Assembly (NCBI RefSeq): GCF_029023725.1
Contig: NZ_CP119075.1
Coordinates: 5,761,501-5,825,500, forward strand
Source of the DNA: Synoicihabitans lomoniglobus
Lineage (GTDB): Bacteria; Verrucomicrobiota; Verrucomicrobiia; Opitutales; Opitutaceae
DNA: 64,000 bases
Reading direction: 5' to 3'
Positions 16,333 to 25,002 of this stretch are shown piece by piece (within the stretch, counting starts at the first letter, position 1; each line of letters starts with the position of its first letter). The notes below the pieces were generated by a model. It did not search any database, had not been told where the DNA came from, and was given only the letters and a program-made list of their open reading frames with translations. The position numbers and the translations under genes are program-made.

Positions 16333-16937
16333 GGCGGAAAAAAGCTGAAACGCTGAAATGTGAACATACGGACCCGTGCGGAACGACACGCCGGGCACGT
16401 GCTACAGAACCCGCGGGAGGGCGCAGAGGTTACAGATTATTTTCCGGCGCGGAGCCGTCACCCTGCGACGACCTCCTGCATGTAGGGCGTTCGCTCGCGA
16501 ATGCCGCCGTCTACCGGACTCACTTGAGCCAACGGACGATCATCTTTCACACCAAGACCGCCAAGCGGTGCCGGGGTGAAGCTTCGCTCTCAACTTCGAA
16601 CCACTTCTAGTCCGCCTTGGAGGACGACGTCGTCCGACGTTGCCTCGCCAAGTCCATCAACCCCAACCCCCCTTTCCTCCCGTGATCAGCGGCCAGTTCA
16701 AAACAGACTATATGAGTTTAAACCTGACCCTTTTTGGCGTGCTCCGCTGTTAAACGACATGCGTCGGTGACTGTAAAGGCTTCCGCCTTCGCTCTGGCGA
16801 GCTTCGGCGCGACAAGTCCGCTGGTGTGACGGTGGCGCTTTGGCTTGGTGAGTCTGTCGGTGGGGGGGGGCCTGATTGCTGATCTCTTCGCGGCCTTTGC
16901 GACCTTCGTGGCAGCGGCAACTCAATCCCCGGCGCTT
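16333..16937. other. Non-coding region with degenerate repeats
   Basis: No credible gene is seen in about 600 bp. It holds the upstream end of the permease gene, a repeat (16605-16737) that recurs on the other side of rnhA, a stretch rich in short reading frames, a run of nine G at 16862-16870, and the short dispersed motif near 16883. Confidence 0.55.
16605..16737. repeat. Degenerate direct repeat, copy 1 (downstream of rnhA)
   Basis: It shares order and sequence with 17575-17714 on the other side of rnhA: a 'GGAGG.ACGAC' block, 'CGTTGCCTC', 'TCCATCAA', 'GATCAGC', then 'GAGTTTAAACC.GACCCTTTTT'. The copies have diverged clearly, so this is old. The tail 'AAAAAGGGTCAGGTTTAAACTC' read in reverse looks like the end of a dispersed element. 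Confidence 0.5.
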
Positions 16938-17465
16938 TCAGAGCAGGCTCAGGCCGTTGGTCACGGCGGCGTTGGCGGGGGCTTCGTAACCTTCGTCGCG
17001 GGGGAGGTTGGGTTGGGCGCGGGCGAGCACGGCGAGTTCGTCGCAGTTTTCGTTTTCCGGATGACCGGCGTGGCCCTTGATCCACTCGAAGGTCACGTCG
17101 TGGAGAGCCAGCAGTCGTCGCAGCTCAATCCATAGGTCGGCGTTGTCGCGCAGTCCTCCCGCTTTGCGAAATTGTTTGGCCGCCCATTTTTCCAGCCAGC
17201 GTTGCGTGACGGGTTCGGTGACATACTTGGAGTCGGACACGACCCGCACTTTGAGCCCGGGCCGTTGCAACGCCTTCAGTCCTTCGATGACGGCGGTCAA
17301 CTCCATGCGATTGTTGGTGGTTCGGGCGAAGCCGCCCGAGAGCATCTTTTCTCGTTTGTCCCACCGCAGCAGAGTCGCCCAGCCACCGCGTCCCGGATTG
17401 GATTCGCAGGCCCCATCGGTAAACATCTCGACGATTCGGGGGGAAGACTCAGGCGGTGGCGGCAT
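16938..17465 (-). CDS. rnhA: Ribonuclease HI
   Basis: A 175-aa RNase HI that cuts RNA in RNA-DNA hybrids (primer and R-loop removal). The catalytic set is present: D17 in 'FTDGACESNPGRGG', E55 in 'NNRMELTAV', D78 in 'VVSDSKYV', H132 in 'KGHAGHPENE' and D142 in 'NCDELAVLARAQ'. A short tail after the core ('NLPRDEGYEAPANAAVTN') is unusual and recurs as a remnant at 22100. The start ATG 17465 (MPPPPESSP) is preferred over an upstream in-frame start that adds 15 residues. Degenerate repeats lie on both sides of the gene. Confidence 0.95.
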   Translation of the reverse strand: MPPPPESSPRIVEMFTDGACESNPGRGGWATLLRWDKREKMLSGGFARTTNNRMELTAVIEGLKALQRPGLKVRVVSDSKYVTEPVTQRWLEKWAAKQFRKAGGLRDNADLWIELRRLLALHDVTFEWIKGHAGHPENENCDELAVLARAQPNLPRDEGYEAPANAAVTNGLSLL

Positions 17466-17574: not shown

Positions 17575-17714
17575 CTTGAATTCGCCTCGGAGGGACGACT
17601 TCGACGTCGTGGGCCGTTGCCTCTTGGGTTCCATCAAAACCAACCCGTTCCGGCCTCCGATCAGCCGTCTCGTTCGATCTGACTACAAGAGTTTAAACCA
17701 GACCCTTTTTTTGG
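17575..17714. repeat. Degenerate direct repeat, copy 2 (upstream of rnhA)
   Basis: The counterpart of 16605-16737, in the same orientation. It ends with 'GAGTTTAAACCAGACCCTTTTTTT' and runs straight into the IS481-type remnant. Confidence 0.5.
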
Positions 17715-17729
17715 GTCCGCGGTCGTTTG

Positions 17730-17990
17730 GTGCGAGCACCCTCGCGGGCGACGCGACAGGTTGCTCAATCCTTGGCCGCCTTCGGCAGCGTAGCGACTCA
17801 GCCACTTATGGCCGGTCTTGCGACTGATATTAAAGTCCTCGCATAGCTGCGTGACTGTGAAGCGGCCGGTGGCCGCCAGACTGACGAACTGCATCTTTTG
17901 ATCCATGGGTGACACTTTTTTCCAAGGCATACGCCCTTCTTAGTGTTACCCATGTCCCTAGACTATCTGTTACCTATGTCCCCGGTTCAT
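17730..17990 (-). mobile_element. IS481-family remnant (transposase N-terminus and element end)
   Basis: On the minus strand from 17930 the frame reads MPWKKVSPMDQKMQFV..., then 'FTVTQLCEDFNISRKTGHKW' and 'SRYAAEGGQGLSNLSRRPRG'. This is the N-terminal helix-turn-helix of IS481-type transposases. The frame then runs into the repeat at 17714, so about 65 residues remain and the DDE domain is gone. Outside the start lie two copies of TGTTACCYATGTCCC (17944-17958 and 17968-17982), the sort of sequence found at IS481 element ends. The element is dead and marks one edge of the AT-rich island. Confidence 0.8.
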
Positions 17991-18133: not shown

Positions 18134-18769
18134 ATGTTCACAATCTTTCGCCTTCATGCGAAGCCTCAGTGGCCCAACGCGCATATCCCTAAGCTTAGGG
18201 ATCACGTCGAATCGCTGTCGCTTGGCCCTCGCATACGGCAAGCGGTACGCCTACTTTTGATAGCAACGGTTTTCGGACATTTGAGCGCGTTAGCAGGCGG
18301 TTCCTCAGCCGCTCCGGCCTTGGAAGTTGAAAACGATCAAGGGGAGATCACTAATTTTTTAAGACTCTATAAAGAGAGTAACTATGTCGTAGTATATTTC
18401 TTCGCCACTGCGACATGTATCGATCTTTGTGTAAGACAGTCTTTTTCGTTTTCTGTTAATGAAGCAGCACTGAAGGAATACGGTGCGGTGATTGTAGGTG
18501 TTAGTGTTGATGCGGCTGATACGCAGCGAGAGTTTCGTAAAAGAAGCGATCTAAAATTCACGCTTATTCCCGATCTTAACCAAGACGTATGTAATGCTTT
18601 TGGGGTTCGTCGATCACCATTTTCAGGTAAGGCTTCTCGCCAGGCTTTCGTGATTCAGCAAGGCAAAATTGTCGCACATTTAGAGGGGATACCCGTTGAT
18701 AGCTATGGCGATGCTGTATTGCAGGAGATTCAAAAGTTGAGTACCGAGACCTTTAGCAAAAAGACTTAA
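18134..18769 (+). CDS. Membrane-anchored or exported peroxiredoxin-like protein
   Basis: A 211-aa thioredoxin-fold protein of the AhpC-TSA/PrxQ type. A hydrophobic segment (about residues 36-60) follows a basic N-terminus, so it is exported or anchored. The fold core is 'VVVYFFATATCIDLCVRQSF', then 'VIVGVSVDAADTQREFRKRSDLKFTLIPDLNQDVCNAFGV'. Candidate active cysteines are C95 and C99 (C-x3-C, like SCO proteins) and C153. The typical PrxQ 'PGCT' is absent, so it may be a thiol reductase rather than a peroxidase. First gene of a four-gene, AT-richer run; the next starts 4 bp after its stop. Confidence 0.7.
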   Translation: MFTIFRLHAKPQWPNAHIPKLRDHVESLSLGPRIRQAVRLLLIATVFGHLSALAGGSSAAPALEVENDQGEITNFLRLYKESNYVVVYFFATATCIDLCVRQSFSFSVNEAALKEYGAVIVGVSVDAADTQREFRKRSDLKFTLIPDLNQDVCNAFGVRRSPFSGKASRQAFVIQQGKIVAHLEGIPVDSYGDAVLQEIQKLSTETFSKKT

Positions 18770-18773
18770 AATT

Positions 18774-19343
18774 ATGAAAAGAATATCTAGAAATGTGCGC
18801 TTTATATTACTATTTTTTGTCACGGGTTATTATGCATACTCGAATCCTCTAGGAGTAGAAACGCATGGGGTAGTTGGTGGAGATGTTATCGAGCAGAATA
18901 TTATTGAACTGGACGGAGATGGTTATGCATTAGTTCCATCAGGGAAGCGTCAAATCGGTGAGGCGGAGGAGGGTTCAGTAACAATTTCTCCATACGTCGC
19001 CGAAGGTTGGGAACGTAGTACAATAGTGGTGGTTGGAGCGTTTGTTATTGGCTATGAAATGGTGGAGTCGATTGATGGTCAGAAGGCAGCGCAGTTGGTA
19101 TGGTTGCGGGGCTGGCCGGAAATCCAGGAAGTTAAACGCCTTGGTCTTTCAATCGAATTGGGGACTGGTTCGAATAGCACATGTGCGTTTCATTCTCTGA
19201 TAGTAACAGCCAACAAAAAGGAAAAGTGGTGGTCATTATCAACGAGTAATAGTGAGCTTATTCGGATCACGAAAAATCAAAAACCGTATCTTGGTGAAAA
19301 GATACAGGTTTTCCCATCGGGGAAAATAAGGATTAGAAAATAG
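18774..19343 (+). CDS. Exported hypothetical protein
   Basis: 189 aa with a signal peptide (residues about 1-23, 'FILLFFVTGYYAYS'). The mature part has short beta-type blocks ('GYALVPSGKRQIGEAEEGSVTISPYVAEGWERSTIVVVGAFVIGYEMV') and a basic C-terminus. I recognise no family. One Cys only, so it is not a thiol partner in an obvious way. It lies 4 bp from the peroxiredoxin-like gene and 30 bp from the next, consistent with one transcript. Base composition is clearly AT-richer than the chromosome around it. Confidence 0.6.
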   Translation: MKRISRNVRFILLFFVTGYYAYSNPLGVETHGVVGGDVIEQNIIELDGDGYALVPSGKRQIGEAEEGSVTISPYVAEGWERSTIVVVGAFVIGYEMVESIDGQKAAQLVWLRGWPEIQEVKRLGLSIELGTGSNSTCAFHSLIVTANKKEKWWSLSTSNSELIRITKNQKPYLGEKIQVFPSGKIRIRK

Positions 19344-19373
19344 AATAAAATCCTTGCATCAAAATCCATAAAA

Positions 19374-21086
19374 ATGAATACGTCGAAGAAAATCTTGAGC
19401 TTGTTTGTGTCTGTTGCCTTCAGTGTTGCTGGCTACTGTAGCGGCTATCTAGACGGAAATGGAGACGGGGTTGATGACTACTGGTGGACAGTAACCCCGG
19501 ACTATCATAATTCGACTAGTTATATTCCAGGCTGTGGATACGAATATGAGGGGGGGTATACATATACCGCAGCGACGGCGGGAAAGTATATGTTGCAGGG
19601 GAAGAAAACTGCCGGTTGGGTTTCGTTTTTCACGAGAACGCTTGCCCAAAATCAATCGCACGAGTGGATTTACTGTGATACCGCTTGCTCCCAGTATTAT
19701 CAATTTAGGATGGTTCGGGTGACGACGATTGACGATTTTGATGATATTGAACTATACGATGATCAAAATTCTTTGATTCAAACGGTTAATGACTCGGACA
19801 CGATTGATGTTGTTGTAGCCCCTGACTCCCAAACGCAGATGATTGTTTGCGATTCAAGTGGAAGCCAAATTAATGGCAGTCTACTGCGTTGGAAGGTTGT
19901 TACACCGAGTTCAAGTATTGCGTACTTCACCGGGTCGTACATAAATTATGCTTCGATAATTGCCCTCGGTGGACCGGGGCAGTATCTAATCTGTGTTGGA
20001 ATAGGCGACTCCTTTTCAATTTGCTTCACAGTAAATCTATTTAAAGTTGAGTTAGAAGAGGTGAGTTTCCTAGGAGGCAACTACCCGATTACGCGACAGT
20101 CAGATAGCACCGTAATGTCTAGTTCGCAGTGGCTCGATCTTAATCATGATGGCGATGTATTAGATTCGAGCGAGCATGGTTATCCGGTAGCTTACAAAAA
20201 AGGGGCGACTCCAACGCTTTCCGCAATAATTAAGGCAACCTCGTCTGTGGCGGGCAAGACTATTAAGGTTCGTGGCATTGGGATCGGTTTTGTGATTGAT
20301 GAGACGACTGCTAGCGTATCCGGATCGACAATCACCCTAAATCCAACTATGGCAAATGGCGCATTTGATTCATCTTCAGTCAGGAGTTATTCCAATGGAA
20401 GCTACATTATCACTTGGGGAGTAAAAATTGGGAGTAGTAGTTGGTATAATGTCGGAAAATCAAGAAATACTTTATATTTAACCTATGATACGCCGCCTAC
20501 AATTAAATTTGAAAATGCTTATGGCGGTGGGTTTACTGAGTTGTACGATACGGCTCTGGCCTACGCGTGTGGCTATGCTAATGGCCAGAGTTCGGCTTCG
20601 TCAGTTATTTCGAACGTGAACTCTGGGGTTGCCTCAGATGTAGGTTATAACGCATACGCATCTCCCTACCTTATTACAACCAACCCGATTGTTGCTTACG
20701 ATGATACTGACGGAATTGTCTGTTTAGATGGGGCCTTCTTGGTTAAAGGCCTTCTCGCGAGTGTCGGAATATCCTCAGAAGTAAAGTTTATATTTGGTGG
20801 AACAGGCACATCAAACCGTTCAATGTTCCAGTATAGTTCGTCTACTTCGAATTTGGCTACATTCTATGTAATTAAACCAGCTACAGATTCTACGCCGGCG
20901 AATCCACATTTTACTTATCATGCGGCTGTTCAGTATGGCTCGACTTTGTATGATCCGTCATATGGAACAAGTTATACTTCTTTGGGTCTCAGTGAAGTGG
21001 CAAACGGCGGGTGCTCCGAACAGCATTCTGGCAGTCTCCCATCGCCGAGTTGGAATAGCGTCGACAAATGTACGCATGCTCCTTGA
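19374..21086 (+). CDS. Secreted protein with transglutaminase-like C-terminal region
   Basis: 570 aa with a signal peptide (cut near residue 21). A 'DGNGDGVDDYW' calcium-binding-like loop follows directly, and a second, 'DLNHDGDVLDSSEHG', lies near residue 257. The middle is Ser/Thr/Gly-rich and beta-like. From about residue 380 it resembles the transglutaminase/cysteine-protease fold. C450 in 'GIVCLDGAFLVKGLLASVGI' sits like the nucleophile before its helix, H516 in 'FTYHAAVQYGSTLYD' like the catalytic His, and D527 in 'DPSYG' like the acid. The triad order and the local patterns fit; the assignment is an inference. Substrate unknown. It is in the same run as its neighbours. Confidence 0.55.
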   Translation: MNTSKKILSLFVSVAFSVAGYCSGYLDGNGDGVDDYWWTVTPDYHNSTSYIPGCGYEYEGGYTYTAATAGKYMLQGKKTAGWVSFFTRTLAQNQSHEWIYCDTACSQYYQFRMVRVTTIDDFDDIELYDDQNSLIQTVNDSDTIDVVVAPDSQTQMIVCDSSGSQINGSLLRWKVVTPSSSIAYFTGSYINYASIIALGGPGQYLICVGIGDSFSICFTVNLFKVELEEVSFLGGNYPITRQSDSTVMSSSQWLDLNHDGDVLDSSEHGYPVAYKKGATPTLSAIIKATSSVAGKTIKVRGIGIGFVIDETTASVSGSTITLNPTMANGAFDSSSVRSYSNGSYIITWGVKIGSSSWYNVGKSRNTLYLTYDTPPTIKFENAYGGGFTELYDTALAYACGYANGQSSASSVISNVNSGVASDVGYNAYASPYLITTNPIVAYDDTDGIVCLDGAFLVKGLLASVGISSEVKFIFGGTGTSNRSMFQYSSSTSNLATFYVIKPATDSTPANPHFTYHAAVQYGSTLYDPSYGTSYTSLGLSEVANGGCSEQHSGSLPSPSWNSVDKCTHAP

Positions 21087-21109
21087 GAGTTGAACAATCA
21101 GATTTTCAA

Positions 21110-21829
21110 GTGTCATCAAAAATAAACATTGCAAGGTCGGTATTACTTACGGTCGGGATGGGCATCTCGTTGCAGGCTGAGCCACAAGTTGCATGGGAGA
21201 GTGTTCGTGGCGCTCTAGAGTCGGGACTTGAGACGGAATTGCTTTTAGAGTTTAGTGGCCCGAATTTGGCTAGCTTTAGAAGTGAAGGTTTGGAGTATCT
21301 CGTCGGTATATACGTTTACGGGACGCATGATGAAGCAGTTTTGAAATTGCATAATATCCTGAATTTAGCTCCGGTACAACCTTCGCGTGTCGAAGAGCTA
21401 GGTAGCGAAGCGTTTGCGATTAATTATGGTAAAGATGAGCGTGGTAGTTTGAGTATGGTAAAGGATAACTACTTGATACAGGTTAGTCGCGGCTATTCGA
21501 TGGAAAAGGTTAAGAGTGCATTGGGATCTGTAGTTCCGTTACTAGTGAATTTGGAGTTTGTTCCGGATGGAGCTAGTAGTACTGGAGCGGTGGTTGAGCC
21601 GTTAGATTCGATTCAAGCTATTGAAGGTTCTGTTACGAATGGCGCCTCTCCAAATTCGATGGAGGTAGATTCGAACACGGAAACAGGACCGCTTAAGAAA
21701 AAGTCGGCAAATAATTATACGCAAGAAACTAGTTCAAGTGTGTTTGGGAAATTTGGAATAGTATACATGTGTTTGTTCGTGGTTGCCATTTTGGTATTGG
21801 TTTTACTGGGATTGCTAAAAAATAGATGA
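21110..21829 (+). CDS. Exported hypothetical protein with C-terminal membrane anchor
   Basis: About 239 aa from GTG 21110. This start gives a clean signal peptide (SSKINIARSVLLTVGMGISLQA-EPQ) and avoids overlap with the preceding stop at 21086; ATG 21068 is in frame and adds 14 residues. The mature domain ('EYLVGIYVYGTHDEAVLKLHNIL', 'YLIQVSRGYSMEKVKSALG') is followed by a Ser/Asn-rich stalk and a single membrane helix 'YMCLFVVAILVLVLLGLL' ending in Lys-Asn-Arg. The topology is a cell-surface or periplasmic domain on a stalk, anchored from its C-terminus. Family not recognised. Last gene of the AT-rich run. Confidence 0.6.
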   Translation: MSSKINIARSVLLTVGMGISLQAEPQVAWESVRGALESGLETELLLEFSGPNLASFRSEGLEYLVGIYVYGTHDEAVLKLHNILNLAPVQPSRVEELGSEAFAINYGKDERGSLSMVKDNYLIQVSRGYSMEKVKSALGSVVPLLVNLEFVPDGASSTGAVVEPLDSIQAIEGSVTNGASPNSMEVDSNTETGPLKKKSANNYTQETSSSVFGKFGIVYMCLFVVAILVLVLLGLLKNR

Positions 21830-21979
21830 ATGATAAGAATTTGGAGTATCGGTGGACTTATTTTTGGGGGCGAAAAAGGGGTCGGGCTCGAATGGCGCTT
21901 AGTTAGCGCGGAAGCGGAAAGATGGATGCATGTGGATTATTTCATAAATAGCTGATTATCAGCTTGATATGATTTAGTA

Positions 21980-22093
21980 GGGCGAAAAAGGGGTCGGGCT
22001 TTGGGGTTTGGGGTTGAGTCGGAACAACGGTGCGACGCGCGGTAGCCGAGCTGGAGCTCGGCGTTCCCAGGCCGGGGAAGCGGTTCGGCGGGG
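21980..22093. repeat. 114-bp perfect direct repeat, copy 1
   Basis: Identical by eye to 22963-23076 (offset 983). It begins GGGCGAAAAAGGGGTCGG and includes 'GTAGCCGAGCTGGAGCTCGGCG'. Both copies run into sequence related to the 3' end of rnhA. Confidence 0.85.
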
Positions 22094-22099
22094 GGGTGA

Positions 22100-22186
22100 T
22101 TACAGCTGGCTCAGGCTGTTGGTTACGGCGGCCTCGGCAGGGGCTTCGTAGCCTTCGTCGCGAGGGAGATTGAGGCGGGCGCGCAC
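22100..22186 (-). pseudogene. 3' fragment of a second rnhA-like gene
   Basis: On the minus strand it encodes about 28 residues, '...NLPRDEGYEAPAEAAVTNS' then LSQL and a stop. This matches the C-terminal tail of the intact rnhA ('NLPRDEGYEAPANAAVTNG', then LSLL). Many differences are synonymous, so it is a paralogue's end and not a fresh copy. The rest of the gene is gone. Confidence 0.75.
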
Positions 22187-22206
22187 GAACTCAATCGTCG
22201 TGGTTT

Positions 22207-22962
22207 TTAGGGGAGTTCGTAGATTTCGATGAGGGCTTCTCCCGTCCCGCCGTTGGTGCCAGCCACGTGGACCGTGTAGGCGCCGGCCGGTAGGGTGGCG
22301 ATGATGGCGGCGTCGTTGGAATCGGCATCGAGAGTGAAGGCTCCCGCCAACTGAGCCGCGTCGGTCACGCCGGGTTCGGTGCCCCAGTTGTCATTCGTGG
22401 CCACCACGGTATCCGTATCGTTGATGCGCGTGTGGACTTCGAGTTGTGGATCGGGCAGCACGCCAGTCAGGCCGAACTTGCTGGCCAGGGTGGGGCCGAC
22501 GCCGCGGATGAGCAGACGCTTGGGGGTGTTGCCATCGATGACGAAGCCGGCGACGAGGGTTTCCGCATCGGTGCCGGCGAAATTGCGCGCGGAGACGTTG
22601 ATCAACCGCGGGGTGTTCTCGTCGGTGGTATCGTAGGCTTCCACCAGCACGACGCCGCTTTGGTCGGGTTGGGTGCTGGTGATATGCACGGTCGCCAACC
22701 CGCCGATGGGCGCGAGCAGGGCGGCGTCGCGGCTGGTGGTGTCGGGCAGGGGGAACGCGCCGACTGCAGCGAAGAGCGCGGGGAGTTCGGCCGCCTGGCT
22801 GCCGGTGGACCAATTGTCGTTGGACGCGATAATCACGTCGGTTCCCTCAACCATGGCGTGCACGCCCAGGCGTGGATCAGGCATGGTGCCAGTGACCCCG
22901 TGAGCGCTGGCGAGGGTGGGGCCGATGGCGCGGATGAGCACATCTTTACTCCCCCCTTCCAG
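22207..22962 (-). pseudogene. Truncated C-terminal adhesin-like repeat module
   Basis: About 250 residues of two tandem modules of the type 'VLIRAIGPTLASAHGVTG...NDNW...TVHITSTQ...VLVEAYD' and 'LLIRGVGPTLASKFGLTG...NDNWG...YTVHVAGTNGGTGEALIEIYE'. The same module closes the exported protein at 52645-53973. On the minus strand the gene should begin further upstream (higher coordinates), but reading enters the second 114-bp repeat at 22963 with no signal peptide or start. The 5' part was lost at that junction. Confidence 0.75.
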
Positions 22963-23076
22963 GGGCGAAAAAGGGGTCGGGCTTTGGGGTTTGGGGTTGA
23001 GTCGGAACAACGGTGCGACGCGCGGTAGCCGAGCTGGAGCTCGGCGTTCCCAGGCCGGGGAAGCGGTTCGGCGGGG
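22963..23076. repeat. 114-bp perfect direct repeat, copy 2
   Basis: Second copy of the 114-bp repeat, in the same orientation as 21980-22093. Just after it 'TGATTAAAGCAGGCTCAGGC' (to about 23107) again resembles the last codons of rnhA, as copy 1 does. Confidence 0.85.
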
Positions 23077-23247
23077 TGGCTTGGTTCGTGATTAAAGCAG
23101 GCTCAGGCGCTTGTCCCTCGCGGCATGAGCCGCGGCCTTCATCGTGGAGGTCAAAAGGGTTTCCATTCGTCCCGAACGGCAACGCGAGCTCGGGTCCAAA
23201 TTGCGACTGAAAGCTGCTCTTTGACTACTGACACCGAGCCGCTTCGA

Positions 23248-25002
23248 TTACTCCAATCCGTAGGCGGCGACGCGTGCGAGGGTGGCGAGTTCGGCTTCCC
23301 GCAGGGGGACGCCGAAACCAGTTGGGCTGAACGATACCCAGCCCGAGGCGGGGCGCGGGTGGAACGATTTGAGGAAGGCGCTGACGCGGCCGTATTCGTC
23401 GAAGGCGAGCGGCGTGACGTCGTCGTAACTGCCGGGTTGCAGCGACGCGAAGGTGGTTTTCAACCACGCGGGCAGGCCCCAGTTGCGGCCGGTCTGCGTG
23501 GGCCGGGCGTAGTAGTTGCCGGAGTCCTCGAATCCCAAAAAGGAGACGTCGAGCAGTTCGCCGGCGGTCGTGGGATTGTAGGCGTCGAAGGCACCTTGTT
23601 CGTCGAAGGTGAATTTGTTGGCCATACCCCATGGCCACACCACTTTGCCGCCCGCCGCGAGGTAGGCGCGCAATGGGCCGGTGGCGGGGTCGGCGCCCAT
23701 GAGGTCGGTCGGGATCTGAGCGAACCCAAACACCACCACGCTGGGCGCGGTGTCTGCCGTGTGTGTGGCGATCCAGTCGGTGAGCGCGGCGGCGGAGTCG
23801 AGGCGGGTGTAACCGCGCGCGGTGAGGTAGGGCACGAGGGTGGGGTCGACGACGAAGCCTTTGATGGAGTCGGGGACAACGGCGGGCAGATAGACCGCTT
23901 TGCTGGTGTCAGGCCCGCGGGCCGTGATGGCGCGCAGTCTTCCGTCGTCGCCCCCGACAAAGAATCGATCGTGGGCGTAAACCGCCGACGCGTAGATATC
24001 CGCTCCGGTATCGTAGGACCATTCCAAGGTTCCTTCGGTGCGGTTGTAGCCGTAGAGTTTGCCATCGGCGCAGCCCCAGTAGATCTGGTCGTCCAGAATC
24101 ACGCCGGTCGTGTAGGTGTGGGCCGGGGCTTCGGCTTCCCATTTGAGTTTTCCGGTGGCGAGGTCGAGGGCGTTGACCTTGTTGTTGGTCGACCAGCCGA
24201 CATAGACGGTGGCGTCGGCGACCGTGGTCGACATGGCCCAAGTCGAGCCGTAGCTGAAGTCCCAGACCTTGGCGTGCGTGGCGATGTCGATCGCGTAGAC
24301 TTTGCCGTCACGGCAACCGACAATGAGCAGACCATCCTGCACGATCGGACGGGTGAAAATGTCGCTGCGGATGAAACCCTGGCTCAGGTCGAGGTCGACG
24401 CCCTCGGTGGCAAATTTCCATTGCAAGGTGCCGTCGGTGGCGGCCAGCGCATAGATGTGGTCGTCACCACTGGGCTGATACACCACGCCGTCGACGACGA
24501 GTGGGGTGGCGCGAAGGGAGTCGCCGGTTTTGAATTTCCACCGCAGTGCGCCGGTGGTGAGATCGAGGGCATAGAGATGTCCATCGCCCGACCCGACCAG
24601 CACTTGCTCGCCATCGATCACGGGAGTAGCGGTGAAGTAGTTCCAGCCCGTTGGCGTAGGCAAAGTGGGTTGCATGGTAAACGACCAGAGCGGGGTGCCG
24701 TCGTGGGCCTGGAGGGCGTGAACCGTTTCGCCGCGCCCCGCGACAACGACGGTGTTGCCCGCGACGGCTGGCGCGCCCGCGATCGGTCCGCCGGTTTCGA
24801 ATTTCCAGCGCAATTCGCCATTGGCCGGATCGGCGGCGTAGAGATTTCCATCGGCACTGCCAAAGTAGATGGAATCGCCCTCAATGACGGCGGAACCCCG
24901 AATGGGACCGAGCGTTTGCACGGACCATGTGGTGTGAGATGCCGCGGCAACCGTGCCGGTGCAGAGAAGCAGGAAGAGGAAGCAACGGGGGCGAGAAGAC
25001 AT
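23248..25002 (-). CDS. Exported PQQ-type beta-propeller protein
   Basis: 584 aa with a signal peptide ('RCFLFLLLCTGTVAAA'). Residues about 30-380 are repeated propeller blades of the pyrrolo-quinoline quinone type, e.g. 'DGNLYAADPANGELRWKFETGGP', 'DGHLYALDLTTGALRWKFKTGD' and 'DGKLYGYNRTEGTLEWSYDTG'. The last about 190 residues ('VVPDSIKGFVVDPTLVPYLTARGYT...VVVFGFAQIPTDLMG...YLAAGGKVVWPWGM') form a separate domain similar to a ThuA/glutamine-amidotransferase-like fold. The propeller probably serves as a binding or scaffold unit like BamB; no PQQ enzyme residues are evident. Start ATG 25002 chosen for the signal peptide; the longer frame upstream reads through the tRNA. Confidence 0.82.
   Translation of the reverse strand: MSSRPRCFLFLLLCTGTVAAASHTTWSVQTLGPIRGSAVIEGDSIYFGSADGNLYAADPANGELRWKFETGGPIAGAPAVAGNTVVVAGRGETVHALQAHDGTPLWSFTMQPTLPTPTGWNYFTATPVIDGEQVLVGSGDGHLYALDLTTGALRWKFKTGDSLRATPLVVDGVVYQPSGDDHIYALAATDGTLQWKFATEGVDLDLSQGFIRSDIFTRPIVQDGLLIVGCRDGKVYAIDIATHAKVWDFSYGSTWAMSTTVADATVYVGWSTNNKVNALDLATGKLKWEAEAPAHTYTTGVILDDQIYWGCADGKLYGYNRTEGTLEWSYDTGADIYASAVYAHDRFFVGGDDGRLRAITARGPDTSKAVYLPAVVPDSIKGFVVDPTLVPYLTARGYTRLDSAAALTDWIATHTADTAPSVVVFGFAQIPTDLMGADPATGPLRAYLAAGGKVVWPWGMANKFTFDEQGAFDAYNPTTAGELLDVSFLGFEDSGNYYARPTQTGRNWGLPAWLKTTFASLQPGSYDDVTPLAFDEYGRVSAFLKSFHPRPASGWVSFSPTGFGVPLREAELATLARVAAYGLE

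What the first reader, a model, noticed from the sequence alone, without database searches (positions are those of the whole stretch)
18134..21829. AT-rich four-gene island of exported proteins of unknown function
Four co-directional genes encode a membrane peroxiredoxin-like protein, a small exported protein, a large secreted protein with a transglutaminase-like end, and a stalked C-terminally anchored protein. Composition is visibly AT-richer than the GC-rich surroundings. One side is an IS481 remnant and the other a repeat with an rnhA fragment. All four have export signals, so they may form one envelope or surface assembly (thiol handling, a protein cross-linking or cleaving enzyme, and an anchored partner). 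This is my main candidate for an undescribed system.
Basis: partly seen in the sequence, partly recalled or inferred. Interest (0 to 1): 0.65.

Follow-up and report, generated by a model that had tools for sequence, protein, structure and literature searches.

The report
Transglutaminase-like toxin with exported immunity partner
A foreign-looking four-gene island in a Verrucomicrobia chromosome carries a secreted protein with an enzyme end of a kind that relatives swap, followed at once by an exported partner: the layout of a bacterial weapon and its antidote, not yet tested at the bench.

Summary
In detail: four co-directional, export-signalled genes at 18134-21829 lie in a sharply AT-rich block (GC 0.44 against about 0.62), absent at the same site in a same-genus genome. 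The interpretation needs revising. Only ORF3-ORF4 form a recurring arrangement. The C-terminal 350 residues of ORF3 are a beta-sandwich plus a transglutaminase-like core (C450, H516, D527); the best fold matches are animal transglutaminases. In 24 loci (Verrucomicrobiota, Planctomycetota, Saprospiraceae) this tip ends an exported-type protein. The next gene encodes an exported protein in 22 of 23 testable cases (23 of 23 if one longer overlap is allowed), against 24 of 163 other gene pairs. The partners are mostly unrelated to each other, and the recognisable partner families follow the tip tree. Most telling, one relative's trunk (48-64% identical, over 66-336 residues) carries nine other tips in seven unrelated groups within its family, 9 of 9 followed by an exported partner, some in tandem. 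This is the signature of a polymorphic toxin-immunity system whose tips and antidotes meet outside the cytoplasm. I file ORF3-ORF4 as a new variant of that known kind. Toxicity and neutralisation are untested, and ORF1 and ORF2 remain unexplained passengers.

The parts
18134..18769 (+). ORF1: exported or N-terminally anchored peroxiredoxin of the PrxQ/BCP kind with an altered active-site motif (TATCIDLCVRQ where readable relatives have TPGCTKQAC-like)
   Evidence: PF00578 E 1.7e-19; alignment with 7 in-frame relatives
18774..19343 (+). ORF2: small protein with an N-terminal hydrophobic stretch, unknown family
   Evidence: no Pfam or NCBIfam match above cut-off; one non-own match at E 0.006 in 387 phylum genomes
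19374..20030 (+). ORF3 N-terminal part (aa 1-219): signal peptide and a short Cys-containing trunk ending in ICFTVNLFKVE, which resembles the swap junction of relatives
20031..20483 (+). ORF3 beta-sandwich domain (about aa 220-370), present in front of the core in most relatives (absent from the short cassettes L041b and L041c)
   Evidence: alignments A1, A4 and AF2 model
20484..21083 (+). ORF3 transglutaminase-like core; catalytic C450 (20721), H516 (20919), D527 (20952)
   Evidence: Cys in 25 of 25, His in 22 of 25, Asp in 21 of 25 aligned tips; fold matches to TG2, TG3 and factor XIII; residues read
21068..21829 (+). ORF4: exported, C-terminally membrane-anchored protein; proposed immunity protein of ORF3 (possible start GTG 21110)
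   Evidence: position -19 bp behind ORF3, hydrophobic N and C ends; partners in the same position in relatives
17661..17930 (-). IS481-type transposase remnant on the left edge
   Evidence: PF13011, PF13518
16938..17510 (-). apparently complete rnhA on the left of the island
   Evidence: PF00075 E 1.6e-36 over model positions 4-138 of 141
22104..22188 (-). 84% copy of the rnhA 3' end on the right of the island
   Evidence: repeat D2
21980..22096 (+). 117-bp repeat, second copy at 22963-23079 (99%)
   Evidence: repeat D1; two further partial copies in the genome at 91% and 76%

Best explanation
ORF3-ORF4 is a toxin-immunity pair of a polymorphic toxin class. ORF3 is exported by Sec. Its C-terminal tip, a beta-sandwich plus transglutaminase-like cysteine enzyme, is the toxic part and acts outside the cytoplasm (periplasm or cell surface) of a competing cell by cross-linking, deamidating or cleaving an envelope protein. 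ORF4 is exported and tethered by its C-terminal helix, so that it can bind and block the incoming or self-made tip in the same compartment. Shown here: anatomy, composition, the conserved Cys-His-Asp, the fold class, the regular downstream exported partner, and exchange of tip and partner on a constant trunk in relatives. Inferred: that the tip is toxic, that ORF4 neutralises it, the chemistry, the target and the delivery route.
For: (1) The tip is found in 26 gene calls at 24 loci (window plus 23) from Verrucomicrobiota, Planctomycetota and Saprospiraceae (L068 was missed by my own profile run and added). (2) 22 of 23 testable tip genes have a co-directional partner at -56 to +35 bp with a hydrophobic N-terminal stretch; the 23rd (L042) has one that overlaps by 92 bp; three more are cut by contig ends. 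Baseline with the looser gap limit: 24 of 163. (3) The 22 partners are mostly unrelated: 6 of 231 pairs exceed Z 5. The five partner families found by phmmer (11 rows) each sit on one side of a branch of the tip tree, 0 of 200 shuffles as clustered (the 14 rows in no family are not counted). (4) Trunk and tip part company: L029/L064 fall from 44-81% to 18-39%; L065/L066 from mostly 66-84% (one window 35%) to 35-43%, then 18%; the partners of both pairs show no similarity. (5) The L029 trunk was found in 5 of 17 genomes of its family, its own included. Apart from L029 and L064 it occurs in nine usable proteins without the transglutaminase profile. With the junction cut off, their tips form seven groups with no similarity between groups at E 0.01, and 9 of 9 have an exported partner at -10 to +23 bp. 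Like tips bring like partners: L100/L105b tips 82%, partners 58%; L102/L105a tips 67%, partners 60%. (6) Tandem units: three tip cassettes in L041, the last cut by the contig end; two tips each in L103 and L105; paralogous partners, three in L031 (39-49%), two in L028 (70%), two in L071 (39%). (7) The island has foreign composition and is absent at the same site in a congener.
Against: No toxicity or neutralisation data. ORF4 has no convincing homologue and is not similar to the partners of the two nearest tips (Z 0.1-1.3), although I first thought so by eye. The ORF4 model failed (mean pLDDT 38.6). ORF3's own trunk is short and is not the trunk shown to swap tips; the link is the tip (28% identical to L029 over 329 residues) and a junction-like motif. 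Holding the L065 and L066 tips together is not rejected (p-AU 0.06). One of the five partner families has weak support (82/37). Three of 25 tips lack the His and four the Asp. Only one of the five partner pairs in the shared-trunk set repeats a tip in another genome family sample, so co-variation rests on few independent cases. No promoter above chance; co-transcription is untested.
Confidence: 0.7

Rival explanations
1. ORF3 is an ordinary secreted cysteine protease or transglutaminase and ORF4 its dedicated inhibitor or chaperone, protecting the producer's own envelope during export, with no role in antagonism (in the manner of streptopain-Spi or staphopain-staphostatin; recalled examples).
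For: A tip with Cys-His-Asp and an exported partner next to it would look the same at a single locus.
Against: Does not predict one trunk carrying unrelated tips, each with its own partner, nor tandem tip-partner arrays.
Confidence: 0.15
2. One reading: a cross-linking surface assembly in which ORF1 handles thiols, ORF3 cross-links proteins and ORF4 is the anchored substrate or scaffold.
For: All four genes carry export-like N-termini, are tightly spaced and share the composition; ORF3 contains many Cys.
Against: No ORF1- or ORF2-like gene found near the other tips, within the limits of short contigs; partners too diverse for a conserved scaffold; ORF1 has relatives in 69 of 132 genomes of the order, most of which lack the tip family.
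Confidence: 0.08
3. The island is an inert, decaying acquisition: the genes are open but no longer expressed or functional.
For: Edges hold an IS481 remnant, repeats and an rnhA fragment; absent in the congener; no promoter above chance.
Against: Four intact reading frames and a complete catalytic triad in ORF3.
Confidence: 0.07

Closest known systems
Polymorphic toxin systems (Zhang et al. 2012, PMC3482391; section 16 read, other passages seen)
   Same: Constant trunk with a swappable C-terminal enzyme tip; an immunity gene directly downstream; standalone cassettes and tandem immunity genes; papain-like and transglutaminase tips (Tox-TGase, Tox-PL) are among the listed toxins.
   Different: All partners seen here look exported, while the passages I saw in that paper name secreted or membrane-bound immunity proteins for a minority only (for example a subset paired with an L,D-peptidase, and Imm65 as a lipoprotein with Tox-JAB-1). 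The trunk of some relatives has TSP3 repeats. No Pfam Tox or Imm family was matched.
TANFOR-domain polymorphic toxins of Bacteroidetes (PMC7073777; passages seen)
   Same: Large exported proteins with polymorphic C-terminal toxins and downstream immunity genes; the immunity proteins of its BaCT toxins were too diverse for one alignment.
   Different: No TANFOR match in ORF3 (if the library still holds that model); that class is almost wholly of Bacteroidetes, this one was found mainly in Verrucomicrobiota.
Animal transglutaminases (TG2, TG3, factor XIII)
   Same: Beta-sandwich followed by a transglutaminase core; best fold matches of the ORF3 model over both domains.
   Different: About 8-13% identity in the aligned rows; bacterial, exported, at the end of a surface-type protein; no calcium use or cross-linking shown.
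PrxQ/BCP peroxiredoxins (for ORF1)
   Same: AhpC/TSA profile; nearest NCBIfam models are BCP/PrxQ, below their cut-offs.
   Different: Lacks the TPGCT-type motif and the second Cys of the readable relatives; has CX3C instead.

Membership tests
Polymorphic toxin system | Constant trunk joined to different C-terminal tips | tested here: met
   Met for the trunk of the relative L029 (nine non-transglutaminase tips in seven groups); not shown for ORF3's own short trunk
Polymorphic toxin system | Immunity-like gene directly downstream | tested here: met
   22 of 23 transglutaminase-tip genes (23 of 23 with L042) and 9 of 9 other tips
Polymorphic toxin system | Tip and immunity gene co-vary | tested here: met
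   Five partner families each on one side of a tip-tree branch, 0 of 200 shuffles as clustered; L100/L105b and L102/L105a; ORF4 itself belongs to no family, so the test does not reach it
Polymorphic toxin system | Tandem or orphan cassettes | tested here: met
   L041, L103, L105; paralogous partners in L031, L028, L071; none in the window (ORF3 single copy)
Polymorphic toxin system | Tip toxic and neutralised by the partner | not testable with these tools
   needs expression
Transglutaminase-like superfamily | Cys-His-Asp triad in the core | tested here: met
   C450, H516, D527 in ORF3
Transglutaminase-like superfamily | Core fold and profile match | tested here: met
   VIA Z 9.6 to TG2 (234 residues, rmsd 5.6); the first 15 rows are transglutaminases or factor XIII, the next RhoGDI at 7.7; Foldseek 6e-06 to TG3; Transglut_core in 8 of 25 tips, best E 0.0024, not in ORF3. 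Parts of the core have low model confidence
Transglutaminase-like superfamily | Enzymatic activity | not testable with these tools
   sequence only
TANFOR toxins | N-terminal TANFOR domain | tested here: inconclusive
   no NCBIfam match to ORF3 at E up to 1; that the library holds the TANFOR model is recalled, not checked
Streptopain-Spi type protease-inhibitor pair | C10-type protease and an inhibitor resembling its propeptide | tested here: inconclusive
   no C10 match for ORF3 or the tips at the thresholds used; propeptide likeness not tested
AhpC/TSA peroxiredoxin (ORF1) | Family profile and peroxidatic motif | tested here: inconclusive
   PF00578 above cut-off, but the TPGCT-type motif is replaced

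The most novel reading that the evidence does not exclude
An undescribed class of polymorphic toxins of Verrucomicrobiota and allied phyla that fights entirely in the cell envelope: every tip (transglutaminase-like, and by motif possibly metallopeptidase, JAB-like and lipase-like) and every antidote is exported. In it, a bacterial two-domain enzyme built like animal tissue transglutaminase serves as a weapon that cross-links a rival's envelope proteins.
Probability: 0.3. Interest if true: 0.8.

Novelty: new variant of a known kind. Interest (0 to 1): 0.64.

Why it matters
My searches of an open-access library listed no paper on weapons of this kind in Verrucomicrobiota, a phylum that is widespread in soil, water and guts (recalled). 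If right, the class offers a set of matched envelope-acting enzymes and antidotes, several without a Pfam family, and a way to ask how a toxin can work and be neutralised without entering the cytoplasm. It also places a transglutaminase with an animal-like domain order in bacterial conflict, which makes a conflict origin of that architecture testable.

Tried and rejected
Four-gene conservation: rejected within what could be seen. No relatives of ORF1, ORF2 or ORF4 (E up to 0.5) lie among the ORFs of the 23 relative loci, some of which are short. ORF4 as a relative of the partners of L029 and L035: first believed by eye and entered in my notes, then rejected by alignment scores (Z 0.1-1.3). The tree used that grouping; the count was repeated without it. 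STEVOR matches of ORF4 (E 0.025; E 1.3e-05, far below its score cut-off) are set aside as composition. ORF4 structure: single-sequence model useless apart from the C-terminal helix. Phage or plasmid carriage: no relatives of ORF3 in viral contigs by pattern scan or in plasmids. PADLOC: nothing. Solved structures by sequence: none for ORF3 alone; for the tip profile, weak peptide N-glycanase matches (E 0.017-0.086) and weaker unrelated rows.

Enzyme guesses for the non-transglutaminase tips (THENKH in L099, GWFHTHT in L100, YSHGGG in L104) are motif resemblances from memory. Pfam gave nothing above cut-off; Lipase_3 for L104 had E 0.2. PDB sequence searches gave one row at E 0.92 for the L100 tip and none for L104.

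Rows dropped or handled by hand: L040, L041c and L043 left out of the partner count (contig ends before any partner). L041c also left out of the tip alignment and tree (truncated). L068 was not found by my profile run and was added by hand. L065's partner is cut at 108 aa; it was kept in the pair scores but left out of the Pfam scan of partners (21 of 22). In one search only 7 of 19 relatives came out in the right frame of my script. In one search two ORFs with trunk matches were left out: L103 9261-10454 (the upstream trunk of L103a in another frame, so that gene or its assembly holds a frameshift) and an 88-aa trunk fragment, L064 2719-2985. Several loci come from one genome (L029, L062, L063), so rows are not all independent. 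The hydrophobicity and gap limits were set after seeing the data; the baseline used the same hydrophobicity limit with a wider gap, on mechanical ORF calls (50 of 163 co-directional and close, 24 of these hydrophobic). The genome-contig scan rests on one short peptide pattern and will miss relatives.
Full report
The observation. The window lies in a single-contig 5.93-Mb genome (C1:5761501-5825500). That genome shares a family code (f1) with G430, whose contig has the same length, 173195 bp, as a record titled Opitutaceae bacterium. ORFs 18134-18769, 18774-19343, 19374-21086 and 21068-21829 run on the plus strand with gaps of 4, 30 and -19 bp. Their block has GC 0.435-0.445, against 0.576-0.677 elsewhere in the window. 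GC3 is 0.38-0.42, against a mean of 0.73 for 35 other mechanical ORF calls. On the left lie an apparently complete rnhA and an IS481 remnant. On the right lie a 117-bp repeat (second copy at 22963) and an 84% copy of the rnhA 3' end. In the same-genus genome G126 the DNA matching the left permease gene and the right PQQ-like gene is 278 bp apart, so about 7 kb is extra here. Which state is ancestral is inferred from composition only.

The ORF3 tip. ORF3 alone matches no Pfam or NCBIfam family and no sequence in the PDB. It is single-copy in its genome. In a sample of 177 genomes of its order nothing else matched but a chance-level piece. Five other genomes of 387 in the phylum sample match by BLAST, and 13 others of 387 with a profile of six tips; 0 others of 61 in the family sample. 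A pattern scan of one genome each for 84,980 species gave 12 loci from Verrucomicrobiota, Planctomycetota, Saprospiraceae and one unnamed bacterium, four of them the same contigs as loci already fetched. Together with the window this makes 24 loci and 26 gene calls. Among 25 aligned tips the Cys is kept in 25, the His in 22 (Glu in L068, L069 and L070) and the Asp in 21. In ORF3 these are C450, H516 and D527. A model of aa 220-570 (14 sequences; mean pLDDT 67.2, pTM 0.69) shows a confident beta-sandwich and a partly confident core. Foldseek's first rows are transglutaminase 3 (E 6e-06), with factor XIII and, for the sandwich alone, RhoGDI further down. VIA gives TG2 Z 9.6, 234 residues, rmsd 5.6, over both domains, and RhoGDI at 7.7 after 15 transglutaminase rows. 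A best Z of 7-8 is common for models without a clear match, so the fold call rests on the agreement of fold, triad and the weak Transglut_core hits (8 of 25 tips, best E 0.0024).

The partner rule. 22 of 23 tip genes with readable downstream sequence are followed at -56 to +35 bp by a co-directional protein of at least 90 aa with a hydrophobic N-terminal stretch. The remaining one, L042, has an overlapping 463-aa ORF (-92 bp) that also has such a stretch. Among 163 other gene pairs in the same 24 sequences, 24 pass the looser form of this test. Except within five small families the partners do not resemble each other (Z over 5 in 6 of 231 pairs). Of 21 partners scanned, one has a clear Pfam match (a Sel1 repeat). 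Each of the five partner families sits on one side of a branch of the tip tree (four with starred support, one 82/37); 0 of 200 shuffles cluster as well. The families hold 11 rows; the other 14 are not counted, and one of them (L040, partner unseen) falls among the L038/L041b tips.

Swapping. L029 and L064 share trunk windows at 44-81% and tips at 18-39%. L065 and L066 share mostly 66-84% (one window 35%) up to the tip, then 35-43% and 18%. The partners of both pairs show no similarity; L065's is truncated. A tree holding the L065 and L066 tips together is 21 log units worse but not rejected (p-AU 0.06). The strongest result starts: the L029 trunk, searched in 17 genomes of its family, was found in 5, its own included. 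Apart from L029 and L064, nine usable proteins carry it at 48-64% identity over 66-334 residues, without any match to the transglutaminase profile. Before each tip stands a junction such as SAQTNCTDxIQVSVIKV. With the first 28 residues cut off, only L100 with L105b and L102 with L105a still match each other at E 0.01, so the nine tips make seven groups. All nine are followed at -10 to +23 bp by a protein with a hydrophobic N-terminal stretch. Like tips bring like partners: L100 and L105b (82% and 58%), L102 and L105a (67% and 60%). L103 and L105 hold two such cassettes each, and L041 three, the last cut by the contig end. L031 has three paralogous partners, L028 and L071 two each. The full-length trunks L099 and L100 have TSP3 repeats and a below-cut-off lamin-tail match; L032 and L063 have TSP3 repeats too.

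What it most likely is. A constant exported trunk, exchangeable enzyme tips, a tip-specific downstream partner and cassette arrays are the marks of polymorphic toxin systems as set out by Zhang et al. 2012 (PMC3482391; section 16 read, passages). That paper lists transglutaminase and papain-like toxin domains. In the passages seen it mentions secreted or membrane immunity proteins with a cell-surface L,D-peptidase, and a lipoprotein immunity protein with Tox-JAB-1. In the present class the partners look exported in every case that could be read, so tips and partners should meet outside the cytoplasm. ORF3 with ORF4 fits this layout: signal peptide, short trunk, junction-like ICFTVNLFKVE, sandwich and core, then an exported, C-terminally anchored partner. 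The step from layout to toxin and antidote is inference. ORF3's own trunk has not been seen with other tips, and ORF4 has no convincing homologue.

What remains open. ORF1 is a PrxQ-type protein whose TPGCT-type site has become TATCIDLC. It could help fold or protect the Cys-containing ORF3, or be cargo. ORF2 could be a leftover immunity gene; nothing tests that. Delivery, target and chemistry are unknown. The TANFOR toxins of Bacteroidetes (PMC7073777, passages) share the logic but not, as far as tested, the trunk. Passages of PMC10318531 note that a Bacillus transglutaminase uses Glu in place of His, so the Glu-bearing tips L068-L070 need not be dead. Searches for earlier reports (listings only beyond the papers named) showed none on this class; the library is open-access only.

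Verdict. Observation confirmed; interpretation partly supported and redirected.

Noticed in passing
window, about 16340 to 23250-23390: About 7 kb between the permease gene and the PQQ-like gene is absent in a same-genus genome (matching DNA 278 bp apart there); it includes rnhA, the IS481 remnant, the island and a 267-aa ORF.
   Followed up: partly
window 16942-17026 and 22104-22188: The rnhA 3' end is present twice (84% identical) on both sides of the island, as if the segment came with, or recombined at, an rnhA allele.
   Followed up: no
window 16625-16735 and 17602-17710; 21867-21888, 21979-22000, 22962-22983: Repeated motifs such as ...CCTGACCCTTTTT (or a variant) and GCGAAAAAGGGGTCGGGCT, possibly ends of a small mobile element.
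   Followed up: no
window 18134-18769: PrxQ-like protein with a CX3C site (CIDLC) in place of TPGCT; possibly no longer a classical peroxidase.
   Followed up: partly
L068, L069, L070: A subgroup of tips keeps the Cys but has Glu in place of the His and no Asp; L067 lacks the Asp.
   Followed up: partly
L037:4172-5509: An ORF that looks like an RHS core follows the tip-partner pair in a Verrucomicrobiales contig (by eye).
   Followed up: no
L104:274-1308, L099:1354-2205, L100:5434-6282: Undescribed tips with lipase-like (YSHGGG), HExxH-like (HENKH) and JAB-like (HTHT) motifs, no Pfam match above cut-off.
   Followed up: partly
L103:8284-10454: The trunk of one cassette is split over two frames, a frameshift in the gene or the assembly.
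   Followed up: no
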